A stretch of 39,712 nucleotides of DNA from Alphaproteobacteria bacterium (lineage in GTDB: Bacteria; Pseudomonadota; Alphaproteobacteria; Caulobacterales; Parvularculaceae), in the NCBI GenBank assembly GCA_013151255.1, contig JAADIQ010000100.1:1-39712 (forward strand). The letters run 5' to 3'. Positions 1-39,712 of the stretch are shown piece by piece; the first letter of the stretch is position 1, and each line of letters opens with the position of its first letter. The notes under the pieces were generated by a model, which saw only the letters and a program-made list of their open reading frames with translations, ran no database searches and was not told where the DNA came from. A program made the position numbers and the translations under genes.

Positions 1-91
1 AGGCGATCGCCTGCTCGGTGTGGAACGTGCCGGTATCGCCGGTCAGGCCCTGGCATATGACTTTGGTGTTCTTGTCGATGAGAATGGACAT
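1..91 (-). CDS. sucD: Succinyl-CoA ligase (ADP/GDP-forming) subunit alpha, N-terminal part, cut by window edge
   Basis: Only the first 30 codons are inside the window. They begin [15 protein letters not shown] and continue with TGDTGTFH, the start of the CoA-binding Rossmann domain of succinyl-CoA synthetase alpha. The protein pairs with SucC to interconvert succinyl-CoA and succinate in the TCA cycle with substrate-level phosphorylation. A GGAG sits about 6 nt upstream of the ATG. sucC normally lies directly upstream in alphaproteobacteria; here it is about 3.7 kb away on the same strand. Identity is secure from the N-terminal signature; the rest of the gene cannot be seen. Confidence 0.93.
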
Positions 92-194
92 GGGGGCTCC
101 GCAAGAGGGGTCGGGATCTGCCTCGGTCTTAACTGCGCCCGACGGCAGGAGCAACCGGCAAACTCTTGCATGGTTGAAGGCGGTGCGGTCAGCC

Positions 195-569
195 TTAAAG
201 CTCGGGCAGGTCGTGTTTGGTTCGCGCTGAGGCGTTCTCGCCAGTATTCAGCGCGCCGGCGCTTGCAATCATCATGATCCAGCACTCTTCCTCAGCGAGA
301 GGCATATGCTCAACGCCGGCGGGCACGACAATAAAATCGCCCTCACCCATCGCGACATCACGATCGCGAAACCGCATGGTGAAGCCGCCTTTGACCACAA
401 AGAACGCCTCGTCAACGCCGTCATGGTGATGCCATTCAAAGGCGCCGTCGATTTTCGCGAGCCGCACCTCTTGTCCATTCACCCGCCCGGCAATATGCGG
501 CGACCAGGCCTCATGGATGCGGTTGAAGGCGCCCTTGATGTTGGTTTTTTTAATGTTGAGTTTTTTCAT
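195..569 (-). CDS. Cupin domain protein
   Basis: A 124-residue single-domain cupin. Cupin motif 1 is visible as H47, H49 and E54 (HHHDGVDE), and motif 2 as G77-x5-P83-x-G85-x2-H88 ([12 protein letters not shown]), so the usual His/His/Glu/His metal site is complete. The start is placed at MKKLNIKK because GAGGAG lies 5 nt upstream; the frame stays open further upstream but that part overlaps the methyltransferase gene and looks non-coding. The substrate cannot be deduced. It is the last gene before sucD, on the same strand, within the material that separates sucC from sucD. Confidence 0.85.
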
Positions 570-628
570 GCGGCCTCCTCTGTCAGCCCTGGCGCCCTGT
601 GACAGGGACGCCAAAGATCGTGCAGCCC

Positions 629-1549
629 CTACGATGTTTTTCGATACATCGCCAAGATGGTGTGCCCATTTATGGTGGCGCAATTTTCTTCCAGGTAGCG
701 GCGCAAAGCGACGCCAAAACGATAATAAACCCAACGCGCAAAGCGGCCGCTCGGCAGGTATCGCGCTTCCATGGTCGCCTGGTACCAGCTGATATTGGCA
801 GGCTGTAGCGGCTCGGTTTCGAGCCAAACAAGATCGACAGGGTAAATGCCTACAAGCGCCTCAAGCGTGCTTCGCCGCCACAATGTCACATGATGCGGCG
901 GCAGATTAAGAGGCAACAATTCACAATGCTGCAGGAAGGCGTCATTATTTGGGACACTGATTAAAAGCGTTCCATCTGGCTTCAGCGCCGCGATACAGGC
1001 CTGCAGAAATGCTGCGGGGTCATCAACATGTTCCAGGACCTGAAATGCGGTCACCATATCATAACGACCGTTGTTGTCTTTGGCGTGCTCAATGATCGTT
1101 TGGTTGTAAACTTCTATTCCCTTGCCCCCGGCCGCCTCGCGACCCAAAGCACTGGTTTCAAGACCGAAGCGGCTGATTTTCGACGCATCTAATTGCTCAA
1201 GAAAGGCGCCCCCGCCGCAGCCAACATCAAGAACGGACGCCGCCCCGTCAATCAACCGAGCGCCAACTTTGAACTCCCACTTCTCGTCCTGATAGGCCCA
1301 ATCACCGTCATCGCCGGCATATAGCGTCTCATAAAATGATGGCGGGCCAGCAAGGCCGCCCGGGTCAAAAAACTCCAGGCCGGTATCACGACAGCGATAA
1401 ACCTCAATCTCGCTGATGGCTGGAAGGTAGGCCGTTATGTCGATTTGGTGGGCGCTACGATAGGCATCTGTAAGCGCCTTCACAGAGATCGATCTAATGT
1501 GGTCAGTGGCTCCCTTCGTAAGAGGGCTAACGATAGTTTTTTGTGTCAT
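629..1549 (-). CDS. Class I SAM-dependent methyltransferase
   Basis: A 306-residue protein with a Rossmann methyltransferase core of the UbiE/Methyltransf_23 type. The SAM-binding motif I is VLDVGCGGGAF near residue 107. It is followed by the motif II/III region VTAFQVLEHVDDP and the strand LKPDGTLLISVPN. The N-terminal segment (EVYRCRDTGLEFFDP) resembles methyltransferases often found near glycan or natural-product genes, but nothing next to it identifies a substrate. No strong Shine-Dalgarno is seen before the ATG. It lies between the decayed dehydrogenase gene and the cupin gene, all on one strand, in the sucC-sucD insert. Confidence 0.85.
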   Translation of the reverse strand: MTQKTIVSPLTKGATDHIRSISVKALTDAYRSAHQIDITAYLPAISEIEVYRCRDTGLEFFDPGGLAGPPSFYETLYAGDDGDWAYQDEKWEFKVGARLIDGAASVLDVGCGGGAFLEQLDASKISRFGLETSALGREAAGGKGIEVYNQTIIEHAKDNNGRYDMVTAFQVLEHVDDPAAFLQACIAALKPDGTLLISVPNNDAFLQHCELLPLNLPPHHVTLWRRSTLEALVGIYPVDLVWLETEPLQPANISWYQATMEARYLPSGRFARWVYYRFGVALRRYLEENCATINGHTILAMYRKTS

Positions 1550-1675
1550 GAGTACCGTTCGGGTTGTTCGCCTTCAGCGCATAATAGCAGCGCAGATGGC
1601 CTTGTTAGAAGTTTTACTGTGTGGAGTAAGGTGTTCACCCCCTTGCCCACTGCGCCGTCGTCGCGTTCAGCATAG

Positions 1676-2438
1676 CTACTCGCCACTATTCTTCAGCGCC
1701 TCAAGCAGCTTGGCGATCTCGCCCCTCACTCTCGGATCGGCAACATTCGGGTCCGGCAACCGTACCGGGAACGACCTGCGAGGGCTGTTCGATGAACGTT
1801 ATCAGATTTTCCTCATCCCAATACCCCGATGCGGCCCGCATCGCAGCGCTGTAGCCGGCAAATTTCGTACTGCCGAAGCGCTCACCCGCAATCGCCCCGA
1901 GCCCGGGGGCATTTTGATGCTCGTCCGGCCTGAAGGAATGACACTGCATGCAACCTTCAATCGCAGATTGAACCTGTGTTTTCAATTCTGCATCAAGACC
2001 GGATGCACTGACATGGTCTTCAATAAATTGTGCGGTCGCATCCTGCTTCGCCGGCGTCACGAACACGACGAATTCGTCATCTGTCCACAAAACAATGCGT
2101 CCGTCGGTGTGTTGATGAACATAGCGAATACGTTGACCGATCGGTATTTGTTCTTCGAACTGTACATAGTCATTAGCTATCCTAGTACGGAATATACTCA
2201 TGCTGTTTAATCCGCCGATTAGAAAATCACCGTCTCAACTTTCATGAAAATTATCTATGACCGCTAAGCTGGAAACGGCGACAGATGGCAGCCACGCAAA
2301 CACCGGCGCAGCATAAACATCATGACGCCCGTATGAAATTGTGTTGGGAATAGGCAGGCCATTATACCGTGTTCCCAATGTCTCCAATGGCCAGCCATAA
2401 TTTCCGCCGTCGATAATTCTGTTCAACTCATCGCCGCC
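1676..2438 (-). pseudogene. Decayed PQQ-dependent sugar dehydrogenase with C-terminal cytochrome c domain
   Basis: Three pieces form one broken gene. The first (GGDELNRI, NYGWP, YGRHD, FAWLPSV) is the C-terminal part of a soluble PQQ sugar dehydrogenase propeller. It stops at an in-frame TGA at 2235-2237, exactly where a Trp is expected (FHES-[W]-DGDFLIGGLNSM), and the same frame continues without interruption. The second piece carries a class I cytochrome c motif CMQCH followed by APGLGAIAGERFG and YSAAM. After VPGT, near 1762, the frame is lost by 2 nt. In the next frame the expected end (PDPNVADPRVRG...AKLLEALKNSGE, stop at 1676) is readable. The N-terminal half of the dehydrogenase is absent: upstream of 2438 the reading frame holds unrelated sequence. 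Truncation, nonsense and frameshift together make it a remnant. Confidence 0.82.
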
Positions 2439-2580
2439 GACGGCGAACGCGTTGCGCGGCCGTTTGAGCCAACGTATTAACGCCGCTTTGTTCATACCAA
2501 ACCTCTTACTGCCATTCATACGCTAGCAGAAACCGTCTTGAGGGCGATCTGGTATTATTGAATCGATAATCCCTAATAAG

Positions 2581-2697
2581 CTACCCCTGCACCACAGCCA
2601 CAACCTTCTTCGCGGCGTCTTCCAGATCATCGGCGGTGGTAATTTTCAGCCCCGAATTGGCGAGGGTTGCCTTGCCCTCATCGATATTGACGCCCTC
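2581..2697 (-). pseudogene. Displaced second copy of the sucC 3' end
   Basis: These 117 bp repeat the last 117 bp of sucC (3792-3908) in the same orientation, with 12 mismatches counted by eye (about 90 percent identity). They encode [16 protein letters not shown] and so on to VVAVVQG and a TAG stop, against [16 protein letters not shown] and VVAAVQG in the intact gene. Six of the differences are silent and six change residues. Homology stops abruptly upstream at a shared GAGGGC; downstream a short TTAT-AGG similarity may continue for about 12 nt past the stop. There is no start codon or SucC body attached. It forms a direct repeat bracketing the thioesterase and phage-type genes. Confidence 0.85.
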
Positions 2698-3115
2698 GCT
2701 CCGGCGGCGTTTTTTCAAAGCCCATAATTCGCTCCACAAAGGCGGCGGGTATGGGCGATTTTTTTTGTGTTTCCACATCCGCATGGACGTAAGTCAACGA
2801 GCCATCGGTGAGGACTTCGTCGCCGCGAAAAATCGCCGCCTTCAGGGTCATTGAGGTTTTGCCAATCCGTACACAGCGAATAGCGACCTCAACCTCATCA
2901 TCAAACCTTGCCGGCGCGCGATAATCAGCCTCGGCATGGACGGTGAAAAATTCCACCACCTGGTCACCCTCAAACCCAAGCGCGCGAAGATATTCCGTCA
3001 TCCCAACATCGAAATAGAGAAAATAATTGACGTTAAAGACAATGCCTTGCGCATCGCATTCAGCCCAACGTACGCGCAGGGGGTGGGTGAAGGTGAAATT
3101 ACTGATACCACTCAT
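2678..3115 (-). CDS. Acyl-CoA thioesterase, YbgC/4HBT hot-dog family, 3' end altered
   Basis: A 145-residue hot-dog fold thioesterase. The N-terminal strand [23 protein letters not shown] is the 4-hydroxybenzoyl-CoA thioesterase/YbgC signature, with the catalytic Asp in ECDAQG and an N-x-x-Y-x-x-Y pattern after it. Proteins of this family hydrolyse acyl-CoA thioesters in the cytoplasm. The last seven or so codons (ERGRQYR and stop) are read out of frame from the displaced sucC tail, so the original C-terminus and stop were probably replaced at the junction near 2697. The catalytic core is complete and the protein may still function. Confidence 0.8.
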
Positions 3116-3172
3116 AATAATGCCGTCTTTATACGAATCATTTACACGATTTCAGTTTTTCAAAAGGAAAGG

Positions 3173-3775
3173 CTATACCTTAGCCAATTGCTCAAAATGA
3201 GCGCCCACAAGATTATTCGGGCCATGTCTTTCAAGATATTTTTTTGCTGTTTGCATCAGCACATATTCTGTAAAAAATGGACGCAATGCCTCCAAGTCGA
3301 TTTGATCGCGATCTACCGCGCTCACACTCCACGTCAGTTCAATTTCCGGGTTATTCGTACTGGCAGACGTTGCTATCCGAACACCCGTATCAGAATAAAC
3401 TGCCGGCGCATCCAGGTTACCCTCTTTCACTTTCGCGCGCCCGACTTCGGCTTGTGTAATCGCTTGTATAACACTGTGTTCCGCCGCCTTAAGCGGCGTC
3501 TCAAATTCTTCATAGAAGGACTGAACAGTCTTAACCGCCTCTCGAAACGATTTAGCATCTGATAGCCTGGACGAACGGCATTCTTTAAGGTGTCCCTTCA
3601 GCATTTTCGAAAACGCAAGCGCCTCGGCGCGCTCATTTTCCGTCATCAGCTTATCTGGTATCCGTTGAAATTCTTCTATGAGCTGGCGGCTCTGATTGAT
3701 GAGCGCCTCATTAGCTTCAGCCAACAAGCGGCCTACCTCATCAGTATCAACAGAAAACAAGTTTCGTCGGACCAA
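3173..3775 (-). CDS. Phage-type protein of unknown function
   Basis: A 200-residue acidic, helix-rich protein. The N-terminal half (LLAEANEALINQSRQLIEEFQRIP, then SDAKSFREAVKTVQSFYEEF) and the end (SAVDRDQIDLEALRPFF) resemble a family of early or recombination-region proteins I know from alphaproteobacterial prophages. This is a recognition from memory, not a search. It starts with TTG, supported by a consensus AGGAGG about 5 nt upstream. Only 16 nt separate its start from the sucC stop, so it is probably transcribed with sucC. Base composition looks more AT-rich than neighbours. No integrase or other phage gene accompanies it. Confidence 0.6.
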   Translation of the reverse strand: MVRRNLFSVDTDEVGRLLAEANEALINQSRQLIEEFQRIPDKLMTENERAEALAFSKMLKGHLKECRSSRLSDAKSFREAVKTVQSFYEEFETPLKAAEHSVIQAITQAEVGRAKVKEGNLDAPAVYSDTGVRIATSASTNNPEIELTWSVSAVDRDQIDLEALRPFFTEYVLMQTAKKYLERHGPNNLVGAHFEQLAKV

Positions 3776-3791
3776 AACCTCCTCCTATAAC

Positions 3792-3908
3792 CTACCCCTG
3801 AACCGCAGCCACAACCTTTTTCGCGGCGTCTTCCAAATCATCCGCCGTGGTAATTTTCAGCCCCGAATTGGCGAGGATTTCTTTGCCCTCATCGACATTG
3901 GTGCCCTC
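3792..3908 (-). repeat. Direct repeat partner: 3' end of intact sucC
   Basis: This 117-bp segment of the functional sucC gene is the partner of the copy at 2581-2697. The two lie in the same orientation, 1211 bp apart start to start, and differ at 12 positions. They bracket the thioesterase and phage-type genes as attachment-site-like or duplication-derived direct repeats would. Confidence 0.85.
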
Positions 3909-4985
3909 CAGGCGGACCACCAGCGGGTCTTCGAGGCCGACCTCTTTGACGGCCGCAACGATGCCTTCGGCGATGATATCGCAGCGCATGATGCCGCCAA
4001 AGATATTGACGAGAATGCCTTTGACGCCCGGGTCGGTGGTGATGATTTTGAAGGCTTCGGTGACGCGTTCTTTGGTGGCCCCGCCGCCAACATCGAGGAA
4101 GTTGGCCGGTTCCGCGCCATAATGCTTGATGATGTCCATGGTCGCCATGGCCAGCCCTGCGCCATTCACCATACAGCCGATATTGCCGTCGAGTTTGACG
4201 TAAGATAAATCATACTCGGAGGCTTTCAGCTCCGTCGCATCTTCTTCAGATGGGTCGCGCATCTCCAAGATGTTTGGATGACGGAACAGGGCATTGGGAT
4301 CAAACCCCATCTTAGCGTCAAGCACCAGGAGATCGCGGGCGCCGGTCACAACCAGCGGGTTGATTTCCAAAAGGCTCATGTCTTTTTCGACAAATGCCTT
4401 ATAGAGCACTGGGATCAGTTTCCCGCACTGTTTCGCAGTCCTCCCTTTTAGTCCCAATGCCTGCGCGATGCGCCGCGAATGATGGGGCATGCAGCCGGTC
4501 GCTGGATCGATCTGGACCGTGATGATTTTCTCCGGCGTTTGCTCGGCGACTTCCTCAATATTCATTCCGCCTTCTGTGGATGCGATGAAGGCGATGCGCC
4601 CCGTCGCGCGATCGACTAGCGCGGAGAGATAAAGCTCGGTCTCAATATTGGAGCCCGCCTCAATATAGACGCGGCCGACCTTTTTGCCGGCGGGGCCGGT
4701 CTGTTTGGTAACCAGCGTCGCGCCCAACATCTGCTTGGCGAAGACGGCCGCTTCCTCCGGCGATGTCGCCATGCGCACGCCGCCTGCCTCACCGGCTTCT
4801 TTCTCTTTAAACTTGCCTTTGCCGCGCCCACCCGCATGGATTTGCGCTTTGACCACATAGACCGGACCAGGCAACTCCTTGGCTGCGGCTTCGGCCTCAT
4901 TGGGCCGAAACACCGGGCGGCCTTCAGCGATCGGCGCGCCGAAATCTTTCAACAGGCGTTTGGCTTGGTATTCGTGAATGTTCAT
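3792..4985 (-). CDS. sucC: Succinyl-CoA ligase (ADP-forming) subunit beta
   Basis: A full-length 397-residue SucC. It begins [16 protein letters not shown], followed by the ATP-grasp domain ([16 protein letters not shown], nucleotide-binding). The C-terminal ligase domain contains [20 protein letters not shown] and [11 protein letters not shown]. The enzyme couples succinyl-CoA cleavage to ADP or GDP phosphorylation with SucD. The ATG at 4985 has GGAGA about 8 nt upstream; the frame is open well beyond it, but that part is antisense-like overlap with the GNAT gene. The usual partner sucD is displaced by an insert, and the last 117 bp are duplicated downstream. Despite that, the coding sequence is intact. 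Confidence 0.97.
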
Positions 4986-12556: not shown

Positions 12557-12597
12557 CGGCTACAGCGCCGGGCGATCCCTCTTATTCGCTCGGCGCC

Positions 12598-12642
12598 CTA
12601 TAGCAAAATGCAATAATTCTGAATCGAATGATTTTGCTATAG
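12598..12642. repeat. Palindromic intergenic repeat (12-bp perfect arms), probable REP-like element
   Basis: CTATAGCAAAAT at 12598-12609 and its exact complement ATTTTGCTATAG at 12631-12642 flank a 21-nt spacer. A second short inverted repeat (GTCGC/GCGAC, about 12652-12666) and a T/A-rich tail ending near the hydrolase stop follow. The composite looks like the dispersed palindromic intergenic repeats common in alphaproteobacteria. Copy number cannot be judged from one window. It sits between the convergent ends of the secreted-protein gene and the serine hydrolase gene, where it may also help end transcription. Confidence 0.6.
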
Positions 12643-12705
12643 ATTTTTCTGGTCGCATCGCGCGACGCAAAAACCGTTGCACACTTTTACTTTTTGCTCG
12701 ATGCT

Positions 12706-13845
12706 CTAAAGCCCGTCATAAACCGCATTGATTAATCGTAATGCACGCGGATCGCCCACCAGATAGGGCGACATTTTATTCATTACATAGGCTGCAGTCA
12801 GCCGGTTTTGCGGGTCAATCAAAACACACGAGCCGCCAAAGCCGGCATGGCCGTATGCGGCCTCGTTCGGGCCAAAGTGCTGGTTGATGTTGCGCATCAG
12901 CCCGGCGGTCCAGGAAAGATGAAACGGCAGCACCAAATCGTCGCCGCGAATGCGTTCGGCAAGCGCGCCGTCAATCGCCTGTGATGTCAGATATTGTGCG
13001 CCGTCCAATTGGCCGCCATTGGCAAACGGGTGAACCATGCGCGCCAACGAACGCGCATCGGCATGCATATTAGATGCGGGGATTTCCGCCGCCATCCAGT
13101 CTTCGCGAGCAACACCCGCCGGGGCCGACCACTTTTTCAGGAAGGCAAGCTGCGTATACTCATTAAGCTCGCCAAGGTCCGGCGCCGTTGGCGGCTTGGG
13201 CATGAAGGCGGTGCGCTGCATTTCGTCCGGCGTCATCCCGCAATAGACTTCCAGCCCGTGCGCCTCGCGCAGCGTGCTAATCAATTCGCCAACCGACTTT
13301 CCGCGCACCCGCCGAAGCAATTCACCAGCAAGAAACCCGAATGTCTGCGGGTGGTATCCGTTTGCGGTTCCCGGCTCCCAAAGCGGCGCCATAGCCGCGA
13401 GACGGCTGGTGATGTCGTCCCAGTCGAGCCAGGTTTGAGGCAGCATTTCATCGGCAATGCCGCAGAGCCCCGCCTGATGCGACAGCAACTGCGCAACGCT
13501 CACCCCGCTTTTGCCGGCTTGCGCAAATTCCGGCCAATATTGTGCGACCGGGGCGTCATAATCCAACTTGCCGTCGCTCACTGCTTGCGCAATTAAAAGC
13601 GCCAACACCGCCTTACCGGTGGAGTATACGCAAGTGAGCGTATCTTCCGTCCACGGCTGTTGTTCTGCTTTATCGACATAGCCGCCGCGAATATCGACCA
13701 CAAGCGCGCCATCGATTACCACCGCAAACGCCGCGCCCAACTCCAGCTCTTCGGTGAAATTATCGCAAAACGCATCGCCGACGCTGGCAAACGTCTCGCG
13801 CAGCGCGCCCGAGGAATTCGGCGTGCGGGCGTCAGACCAATTCAT
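12706..13845 (-). CDS. Beta-lactamase-fold serine hydrolase (class C/EstB-like esterase)
   Basis: A 379-residue protein of the serine beta-lactamase/penicillin-binding transpeptidase superfamily. The S-x-x-K nucleophile motif is S75-T-G-K78, a Tyr motif is at Y164 (NGYHPQTFG), and the third motif is replaced by HAGFGG near the C-terminus, as in EstB-type esterases and LACTB-like proteins. There is no signal peptide, so it is likely a cytoplasmic esterase or peptidase and not a secreted beta-lactamase. Natural substrate unknown. A 41-bp gap separates it from the lipoprotein gene upstream on the same strand. Confidence 0.87.
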   Translation of the reverse strand: MNWSDARTPNSSGALRETFASVGDAFCDNFTEELELGAAFAVVIDGALVVDIRGGYVDKAEQQPWTEDTLTCVYSTGKAVLALLIAQAVSDGKLDYDAPVAQYWPEFAQAGKSGVSVAQLLSHQAGLCGIADEMLPQTWLDWDDITSRLAAMAPLWEPGTANGYHPQTFGFLAGELLRRVRGKSVGELISTLREAHGLEVYCGMTPDEMQRTAFMPKPPTAPDLGELNEYTQLAFLKKWSAPAGVAREDWMAAEIPASNMHADARSLARMVHPFANGGQLDGAQYLTSQAIDGALAERIRGDDLVLPFHLSWTAGLMRNINQHFGPNEAAYGHAGFGGSCVLIDPQNRLTAAYVMNKMSPYLVGDPRALRLINAVYDGL

Positions 13846-38817: not shown

Positions 38818-39563
38818 TGTTCCACCAGCTCCGCTGCGCGGGTCTCGTCGACAAACTGTAGTCGCGCAAGCCGCCGCGCCGTTAATTCGTTTCTTATCGA
38901 TGGCAATAACATCGCCACATAACCGCTCATATAGGCGGCGATCATCAACAACAAAGGCGTCAGCATCGCGCCGTCTATTGTCGGCCCGTCAGCGCGAAGG
39001 ATGCTCGCTGGCTGATGCAGGCTGTTCCACCACTCAACCGAAAACTTTATGACCGGCACATTGACGAAACCGACAATCGCCAAGATGGCGGCAAGCCGCG
39101 CTGCGCGCGCTTTATCGGGGATCGCCCGCCACAGCGCCATATAGCCGAGATATAAAAACAACATCACCAGCACCGATGTCAGCCGCGCATCCCACACCCA
39201 CCAGGCGCCCCACATCGGCTTGCCCCAGAGCGAGCCAGTAAACAGCGCCAAGATTGTAAAACCGGCGCCAAGCGGCGCGGTCTGTTTGGCGACCACATCG
39301 GCCAGCGGATGCTTCCAGATAAACCCCACCGCCGAGGCGCCCGCCATCACTGAATAGCAAAACATCGACATCCACGCTGCCGGCACATGCACATACATAA
39401 TCCGCACCGCCTCGCCCTGCTGATAGTCGGCAGGGGAATTAAACAGCGCAAAGTAAAGCCCGGCGGCGCCGGTCAGCAGCGCCAGCCCGAGCGCCGCCGG
39501 AAAAGCTATCCGCGCGTAACGCTCAAAGCGCACAGGGTTGGCGAGGTCATTGAAAAAATTCAT
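38814..39563 (-). CDS. ccmC: Haem exporter/handling protein CcmC
   Basis: A 249-residue inner-membrane protein with six helices that delivers haem to CcmE. The WWD motif lies at about residues 113-125 (WGKPMWGAWWVWD). One haem-ligand His is His59 in MYVHVPAAW and the other is in NSLHQPAS. The start at MNFFNDLANP (39563) is 1 nt after the ccmB stop; the open frame to 39623 overlaps ccmB and is not used. It forms the ccmB-ccmC-ccmE unit. Confidence 0.96.
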   Translation of the reverse strand: MNFFNDLANPVRFERYARIAFPAALGLALLTGAAGLYFALFNSPADYQQGEAVRIMYVHVPAAWMSMFCYSVMAGASAVGFIWKHPLADVVAKQTAPLGAGFTILALFTGSLWGKPMWGAWWVWDARLTSVLVMLFLYLGYMALWRAIPDKARAARLAAILAIVGFVNVPVIKFSVEWWNSLHQPASILRADGPTIDGAMLTPLLLMIAAYMSGYVAMLLPSIRNELTARRLARLQFVDETRAAELVEQ

Positions 39564-39564
39564 C

Positions 39565-39712
39565 TTAATCCAGGTTGGAGCGCAACGCCGCCGCGCTGGC
39601 AAGAGGCGATAGTATCGCAGCAAACAGAACCGTCGCGCCGAGCAACATTAAATTGGCGCCATATTGCGGCGCGCCCGCGCCAGACATCGCCGCACCGGAC
39701 CCGAAAATCAGG
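39565..39712 (-). CDS. ccmB: Haem exporter protein CcmB, C-terminal part, cut by window edge
   Basis: The last 48 codons of a membrane protein that read LIFGSGAAMS, then LMLLGATVLFAAILSPLASAAALRSNLD and a TAA stop. This is the final helix and the short tail of CcmB, the membrane subunit of the CcmAB transporter that powers release of holo-CcmE. The stop is 1 nt before the ccmC ATG, the usual operon order. The rest of the gene is outside the window. Confidence 0.88.
   Translation of the reverse strand, partial: LIFGSGAAMSGAGAPQYGANLMLLGATVLFAAILSPLASAAALRSNLD

What the first reader, a model, noticed from the sequence alone, without database searches (positions are those of the whole stretch)
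92..3791. sucC and sucD are split by a 3.7-kb block carrying a second copy of the sucC 3' end
Succinyl-CoA synthetase subunits are normally encoded head to tail with almost no gap. Here five genes or remnants lie between them. The last 117 bp of sucC recur 1211 bp downstream in the same orientation with 12 differences, six silent and six replacing. An integrated element that carries its own gene tail leaves exactly this pattern: an intact gene with a new tail, and the old tail displaced to the far end. The silent changes suggest the two tails diverged while both were functional, so one is probably of foreign origin. No integrase is visible, so the element would be a decayed remnant. A simple partial duplication followed by drift is the alternative.
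Basis: partly seen in the sequence, partly recalled or inferred. Interest (0 to 1): 0.7.

Follow-up and report, generated by a model that had tools for sequence, protein, structure and literature searches.

The report
Displaced gene tail in variable slot
In this alphaproteobacterium the two halves of a basic metabolic enzyme are separated by a gene slot whose contents vary from relative to relative, and a decayed 117-letter copy of one gene's end left inside that slot is most likely a scar of ordinary recombination, not the mark of an inserted mobile element.

Summary
The repeat is real: the last 117 bp of sucC (3792-3908) recur at 2581-2697 with six silent and six replacing differences. The main inference fails. 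The sucC-sucD gap is not peculiar to this genome: it is 424-4066 bp in the 16 of 24 same-genus loci (own included) where it could be measured, while sucD-odhA spacing is 99-104 bp, and it exceeds 300 bp in 34 of 76 similar named genomes. A promoter-like motif precedes sucD. The extra tail, the orphan ORF beside sucC and the rewritten end of ybgC were seen only here. All six replacing differences are changes in the extra tail, so it is a decaying fragment. Both tails belong to this species group. I favour a one-sided (homology-facilitated illegitimate) recombination scar between two alleles of the slot; local duplication is nearly as likely; an integrase element is not supported. Separately, about 720 bp in the 5' part of sucC (~4221-4944) come from a more distant, unsampled relative. 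Interest is modest.

The parts
3792..4985 (-). sucC, succinyl-CoA ligase beta subunit, 397 aa, intact
3792..3908 (-). tail A, the functional 3' end of sucC
4221..4944 (-). foreign tract inside sucC (limits approximate): on average ~78% identical to the sister species, flanks ~90%
3173..3775 (-). ORF200, orphan; match in 1 of 62 family genomes (the own one), no significant Pfam match, no NCBIfam or PADLOC match
2678..3115 (-). YbgC/FadM-type thioesterase gene; its last residues are rewritten by the junction with tail B
2581..2697 (-). tail B, second copy of the last 117 bp of sucC, carrying all six replacing changes
2439..2580 (-). about 140 bp of unknown origin between tail B and the GSDH remnant
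   Evidence: no convincing match beyond itself in 11 genomes
1701..2519 (-). remnant of a GSDH-cytochrome c gene: N-terminal ~368 codons missing and one in-frame stop near 2235
629..1549 (-). methyltransferase gene, 91% aa identity to the gene directly behind sucC in G020
195..569 (-). cupin gene, common in this slot
126..154 (-). promoter-like element TTGC-(17 nt)-GTTAAGAC; GTTAAGAC begins 42 nt before the sucD ATG
1..91 (-). first 91 nt of sucD; identical to the end of contig C55, which holds the rest

Best explanation
The sucC-sucD junction is a variable gene slot of long standing in this family. Shown: the slot exists in relatives, a conserved promoter-like element lies between it and sucD, and tail B sits at a junction that (compared with G006) removes the last codon and stop of ybgC. 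Inferred: a DNA piece with a sucC 3' end, ORF200 and ybgC from a close relative paired with the resident sucC, and its other end was joined with almost no homology into the resident sucC, 117 bp before its end (homology-facilitated illegitimate recombination). The incoming tail (A) now ends sucC; the resident tail (B) was pushed behind ybgC and decays. No element or integrase is needed.
For: ybgC homology to G006 ends at 2697, the base where tail B begins, with only 2-3 nt shared at the junction (read). This locus looks like two slot types stacked: G006 has sucC-ybgC-cupin-sucD, G020 has sucC-methyltransferase-cupin-sucD, this genome has both sets. ybgC was not found in the slots of G020 and G010, which group with this genome in the 3' sucC tree at support 61 and are its nearest in sucD and the uncut odhA segments. 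In the tail no informative site unites A with B; two unite B with G006 and one A with G020. sucC carries another recombination tract. A like process is proposed in print for Vibrio immunity-gene arrays, with a shifted-back effector 3' end (PMC5361080, passages read); many hotspots without recognisable mobile elements show frequent recombination in flanking core genes (PMC5635113, passages read).
Against: Silent A-B distance (6/28) is the lowest of the pairs tabulated (A to the three sisters 9-12, B to G006 7), as a duplication inside the lineage would give. Four of five bases just past the stop also match between the copies, hinting that B was copied with its surroundings. No donor arrangement with ORF200 was found. 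The truncated GSDH needs a separate deletion. Gene order in the slot differs among relatives (G013 has GSDH before ybgC, G008 the methyltransferase before ybgC), so the ancestral order is unsure. Pairwise-distance correlations gave no clear sign that sucC recombines more than sucD or odhA across the genus.
Confidence: 0.48

Rival explanations
1. Local event inside the lineage: the last ~122 bp of sucC were copied to the ybgC 3' end, either by tandem duplication followed by deletion or as templated filler DNA when a deletion removed the end of ybgC and the first ~368 codons of GSDH. B then decayed.
For: The lowest silent distance tabulated is A-B; four of five bases match past the stop; in G023 ybgC and GSDH are adjacent, so one deletion with filler would explain both the lost ybgC end and the truncated GSDH; tail B was found only here.
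Against: No informative site unites A and B against G006, G020 and G010, and B weakly groups with G006. The ~140 bp after B have no known source. In G013 GSDH stands before ybgC, so the G023 order may not be ancestral.
Confidence: 0.35
2. A decayed integrative element that uses the sucC 3' end as attachment site and carries its own gene tail.
For: Intact gene plus displaced tail is the layout such elements leave (recalled, from no call).
Against: No integrase among the block proteins searched and no tRNA near it; most block genes are residents of the slot in relatives; no other slot tested has a second tail; the far repeat lies inside the block, not at its sucD end.
Confidence: 0.04
3. Assembly artefact or strain chimera in a fragmented genome assembly.
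For: The window is one contig of a 131-contig assembly and begins with a 91-nt overlap that ends exactly at the sucD ATG, which suggests a graph branch there.
Against: Tail B differs from A at 12 sites and carries decay-like changes, so it is not a misplaced copy of A; the two contigs are syntenic and mostly 87-93% identical to G020 and G010.
Confidence: 0.08

Closest known systems
Homology-facilitated illegitimate recombination scars (Vibrio T6SS immunity arrays, Rhs orphan 3' regions; PMC5361080, passages)
   Same: Conserved upstream gene as anchor, new cargo behind it, an old 3' end shifted downstream; no integrase
   Different: The anchor is a housekeeping enzyme gene and the displaced piece is a decaying fragment, not a kept immunity gene or toxin tip; donor not identified here
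Hotspots without recognisable mobile elements between core genes (PMC5635113, passages)
   Same: Fixed core flanks, turnover of unrelated small genes, no mobile-element gene seen among the own block proteins searched
   Different: Here the comparison is across a genus and family, and raised recombination of the flanking genes was not shown
Integrative elements that replace a gene's 3' end (recalled; no paper read)
   Same: Intact gene and a displaced tail
   Different: No integrase found and no bounded element; the gap exists in relatives

Membership tests
Integrative element in a gene 3' end | Integrase gene within the element | tested here: not met
   (Pfam): none among the six block ORFs searched; for two and three of them
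Integrative element in a gene 3' end | Relatives without the element have sucC and sucD joined | tested here: not met
   gap 424-4066 bp in the 16 of 24 same-genus loci where measurable; in the other 8 sucD was not in the fetched stretch
Integrative element in a gene 3' end | Repeats bound the whole insert | tested here: not met
   the far tail lies at 2581-2697, about 2.5 kb short of sucD
Homology-facilitated illegitimate recombination scar | One junction with long homology (sucC), the other with little or none | tested here: met
   ybgC/tail B join with 2-3 nt in common; the sucC crossover itself cannot be located
Homology-facilitated illegitimate recombination scar | Incoming piece and resident come from different genomes | tested here: inconclusive
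   searches point in different directions
Homology-facilitated illegitimate recombination scar | Donor arrangement known | tested here: not met
   ORF200 in 1 of 62 family genomes, the own one
Gene hotspot without mobile elements between core genes | Gap varies while neighbouring gaps are fixed | tested here: met
Gene hotspot without mobile elements between core genes | Excess homologous recombination in the flanking core genes | tested here: inconclusive
   a tract in this sucC, but no clear excess across 15 genomes

The most novel reading that the evidence does not exclude
Across much of the Alphaproteobacteria the point behind sucC is a standing, integrase-free gene-exchange slot inside the sucCD-odhAB gene row, kept tolerable by a separate sucD promoter; foreign DNA enters by pairing with sucC, and tail B plus the mosaic 5' part of this sucC are fossils of that traffic.
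Probability: 0.25. Interest if true: 0.45.

Novelty: new member of a known kind. Interest (0 to 1): 0.25.

Why it matters
It shows how a pattern that looks like a mobile-element footprint can arise in a variable slot of long standing by common recombination. If the slot reading holds, a TCA-cycle gene row would be a handy natural place to study element-free gene turnover and one-sided recombination across related species.

Tried and rejected
Misbinned or foreign contig: rejected, synteny and mostly 87-93% identity to G020/G010 on both contigs. A second sucC in the own genome as donor of the 5' tract: one search lists only the full gene and tail B there. Known donor for the 5' tract: 58 of 62 family genomes match, best non-self 79%. 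Origin of the ~140 bp behind tail B: no convincing match; best non-self 25 nt, E 0.003. ORF200 as a defence or known protein: no PADLOC or NCBIfam match, Pfam only non-significant. Excess recombination of sucC genus-wide: no clear excess; some odhA segments in that table are cut by a contig end (100% entries with G020) and are not used. Paper searches: (sucC, sucD, 'not adjacent') held 2 papers and neither title concerned this; one search was too loose (589,501 papers, 10 listed) to say anything; one search held 104, 12 listed, none on a split by title; some searches gave the three papers read in passages. I make no claim that the slot is undescribed. Single-breakpoint fit: best break at nt 921, nearly equal fits at 752-780; I use ~765 because the windowed identity changes there. 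The 21 comparison tails were counted back from the stop without alignment, and three of those genes differ by one or two codons in total length, so single mismatches in the genus-wide tallies may be shifts; the three sisters have the same length.

Full report
What is there. The window is contig C50 of a 131-contig genome, 92% complete. sucC lies at 3792-4985 on the minus strand. Its last 117 bp recur at 2581-2697 at 89.7% identity, with six silent and six replacing differences. Reading downstream from sucC come ORF200, ybgC, tail B, a broken GSDH-cytochrome c gene, a methyltransferase, a cupin and the start of sucD. The rest of sucD is on contig C55, whose last 91 bases equal window 1-91; odhA, odhB and lpd follow it there (names by similarity, recalled). 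The closest genome in the kept list is a MAG named Parvularcula sp. NAT21, 82% at the protein level.

The gap is not peculiar to this genome. Among 24 same-genus loci (own included) the sucC-sucD gap could be measured in 16 and runs from 424 to 4066 bp, median 1648; in the same 16 the sucD-odhA spacing is 99-104 bp (measured to a trimmed odhA start, so with a fixed offset), and odhA-odhB is 17-34 bp in 13 of 24. In the other eight, sucD was not found in the stretch fetched. A ybgC match was found behind sucC in 16 of the 24 and a cupin match in 16 of the 24; methyltransferase and GSDH matches in 3 each. Of eight loci from other families of the order, six gaps are 60 bp or less and two are 708 and 874 bp. 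Among 80 named-genome loci kept for sucC similarity, so not a random set, sucD was found downstream in 76: 38 gaps of 100 bp or less, 4 of 101-300, 34 above 300. Matches to the methyltransferase and the cupin occur in 3 and 4 of the 41 longer stretches, and none to ybgC, GSDH or ORF200. Of seven further genes standing directly behind sucC in relatives, one is a FkbM-type methyltransferase, one a DUF805 protein, one has a Pfam match below the cut-off and four have none.

sucD may have its own promoter. A GTTAAGAC-like motif starts 39-63 nt before the sucD ATG in the 15 genomes examined; 13 of 15 have at most one mismatch, two have two, against 5 of 312 background windows with at most one. TTGC at a near-fixed distance upstream was read by eye in the 15 printed lines. 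This would let the slot change without silencing sucD; expression was not tested.

The two tails. At the six replacing sites the three sisters agree with A, as do 18 or 19 of the 21 other same-genus tails; so these are changes in B. Two silent differences set A apart from the three sisters, and the remaining four lie at sites that vary among the sisters. So B behaves as an unselected fragment. Silent differences: A-B 6 of 28; A to G006, G020, G010 12, 11, 9; B to the same 7, 11, 8. Both tails thus belong to this species group. The tree of 117 nt puts B near G006 and A near G020/G010 with bootstraps below 60, and no informative site unites A and B. Whether B is a copy of A or a distinct allele is not settled.

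The junctions. The match of ybgC to G006 stops at 2697, where tail B starts. Compared with G006 the ybgC frame has five new residues in place of the last one and ends within the tail; 2-3 nt are shared at the join (read). The GSDH gene, which stands whole next to ybgC in G023, here lacks about 368 N-terminal codons and has one in-frame stop. In G013 GSDH stands before ybgC. The ~140 bp between tail B and GSDH have no convincing match.

A second scar. The first ~41 nt of sucC are as in G020 and G006; the next ~720 nt are on average ~78% identical to the sisters, which are ~90% alike there; the 3' third is ~90% again, and most of the 1.4 kb upstream is near 90% to G020. For the first 245 codons dS to the sisters is 1.10-1.21, against 0.44-0.52 among them; for the last 138 codons it is 0.46-0.54, against 0.56-0.69 among them. 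A change-point fit was not matched in 1000 permutations. The donor is unsampled: the best non-self match in 62 family genomes is 79%. This tract and tail B need not stem from one event, since the sucC end next to the cargo is of the own species group.

Mechanism. I favour one-sided recombination between two alleles of the slot from within the species group, because the locus looks like a G006-type and a G020-type slot stacked, joined at a near-homology-free junction. A local duplication or templated filler is almost as likely. The kind of event is known: a similar displacement with a shifted-back 3' end is proposed for Vibrio (PMC5361080, passages), recombination assisted by homology for small variable segments (PMC2884548, passages), and many hotspots lack recognisable mobile elements (PMC5635113, passages).

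Noticed in passing
window 12597-12709: Dispersed repeat of about 110 nt with 12-nt inverted arms at one end: four further copies in the own genome and many in G010 and G020, probably a small interspersed element.
   Followed up: partly
L033:5409-6905 (contig C55): odhB: the C-terminal part with the SYDHRVVDG motif lies in another reading frame than the rest; sequencing error or real is unknown.
   Followed up: no
window 39500-39712: The right end of the contig is 97% identical to C101:162-374 of the same genome, a repeat or strain variant at a contig end.
   Followed up: no
window 4221-4944: Tract of about 720 bp in sucC from an unsampled, more distant relative.
   Followed up: yes
window 126-154: Promoter-like element upstream of sucD, with counterparts in the 15 genus genomes examined.
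   Followed up: partly
window 1-91: The contig begins with a 91-nt overlap with C55 that ends exactly at the sucD ATG, which suggests a branch in the assembly graph, so the population may be mixed upstream of sucD.
   Followed up: partly
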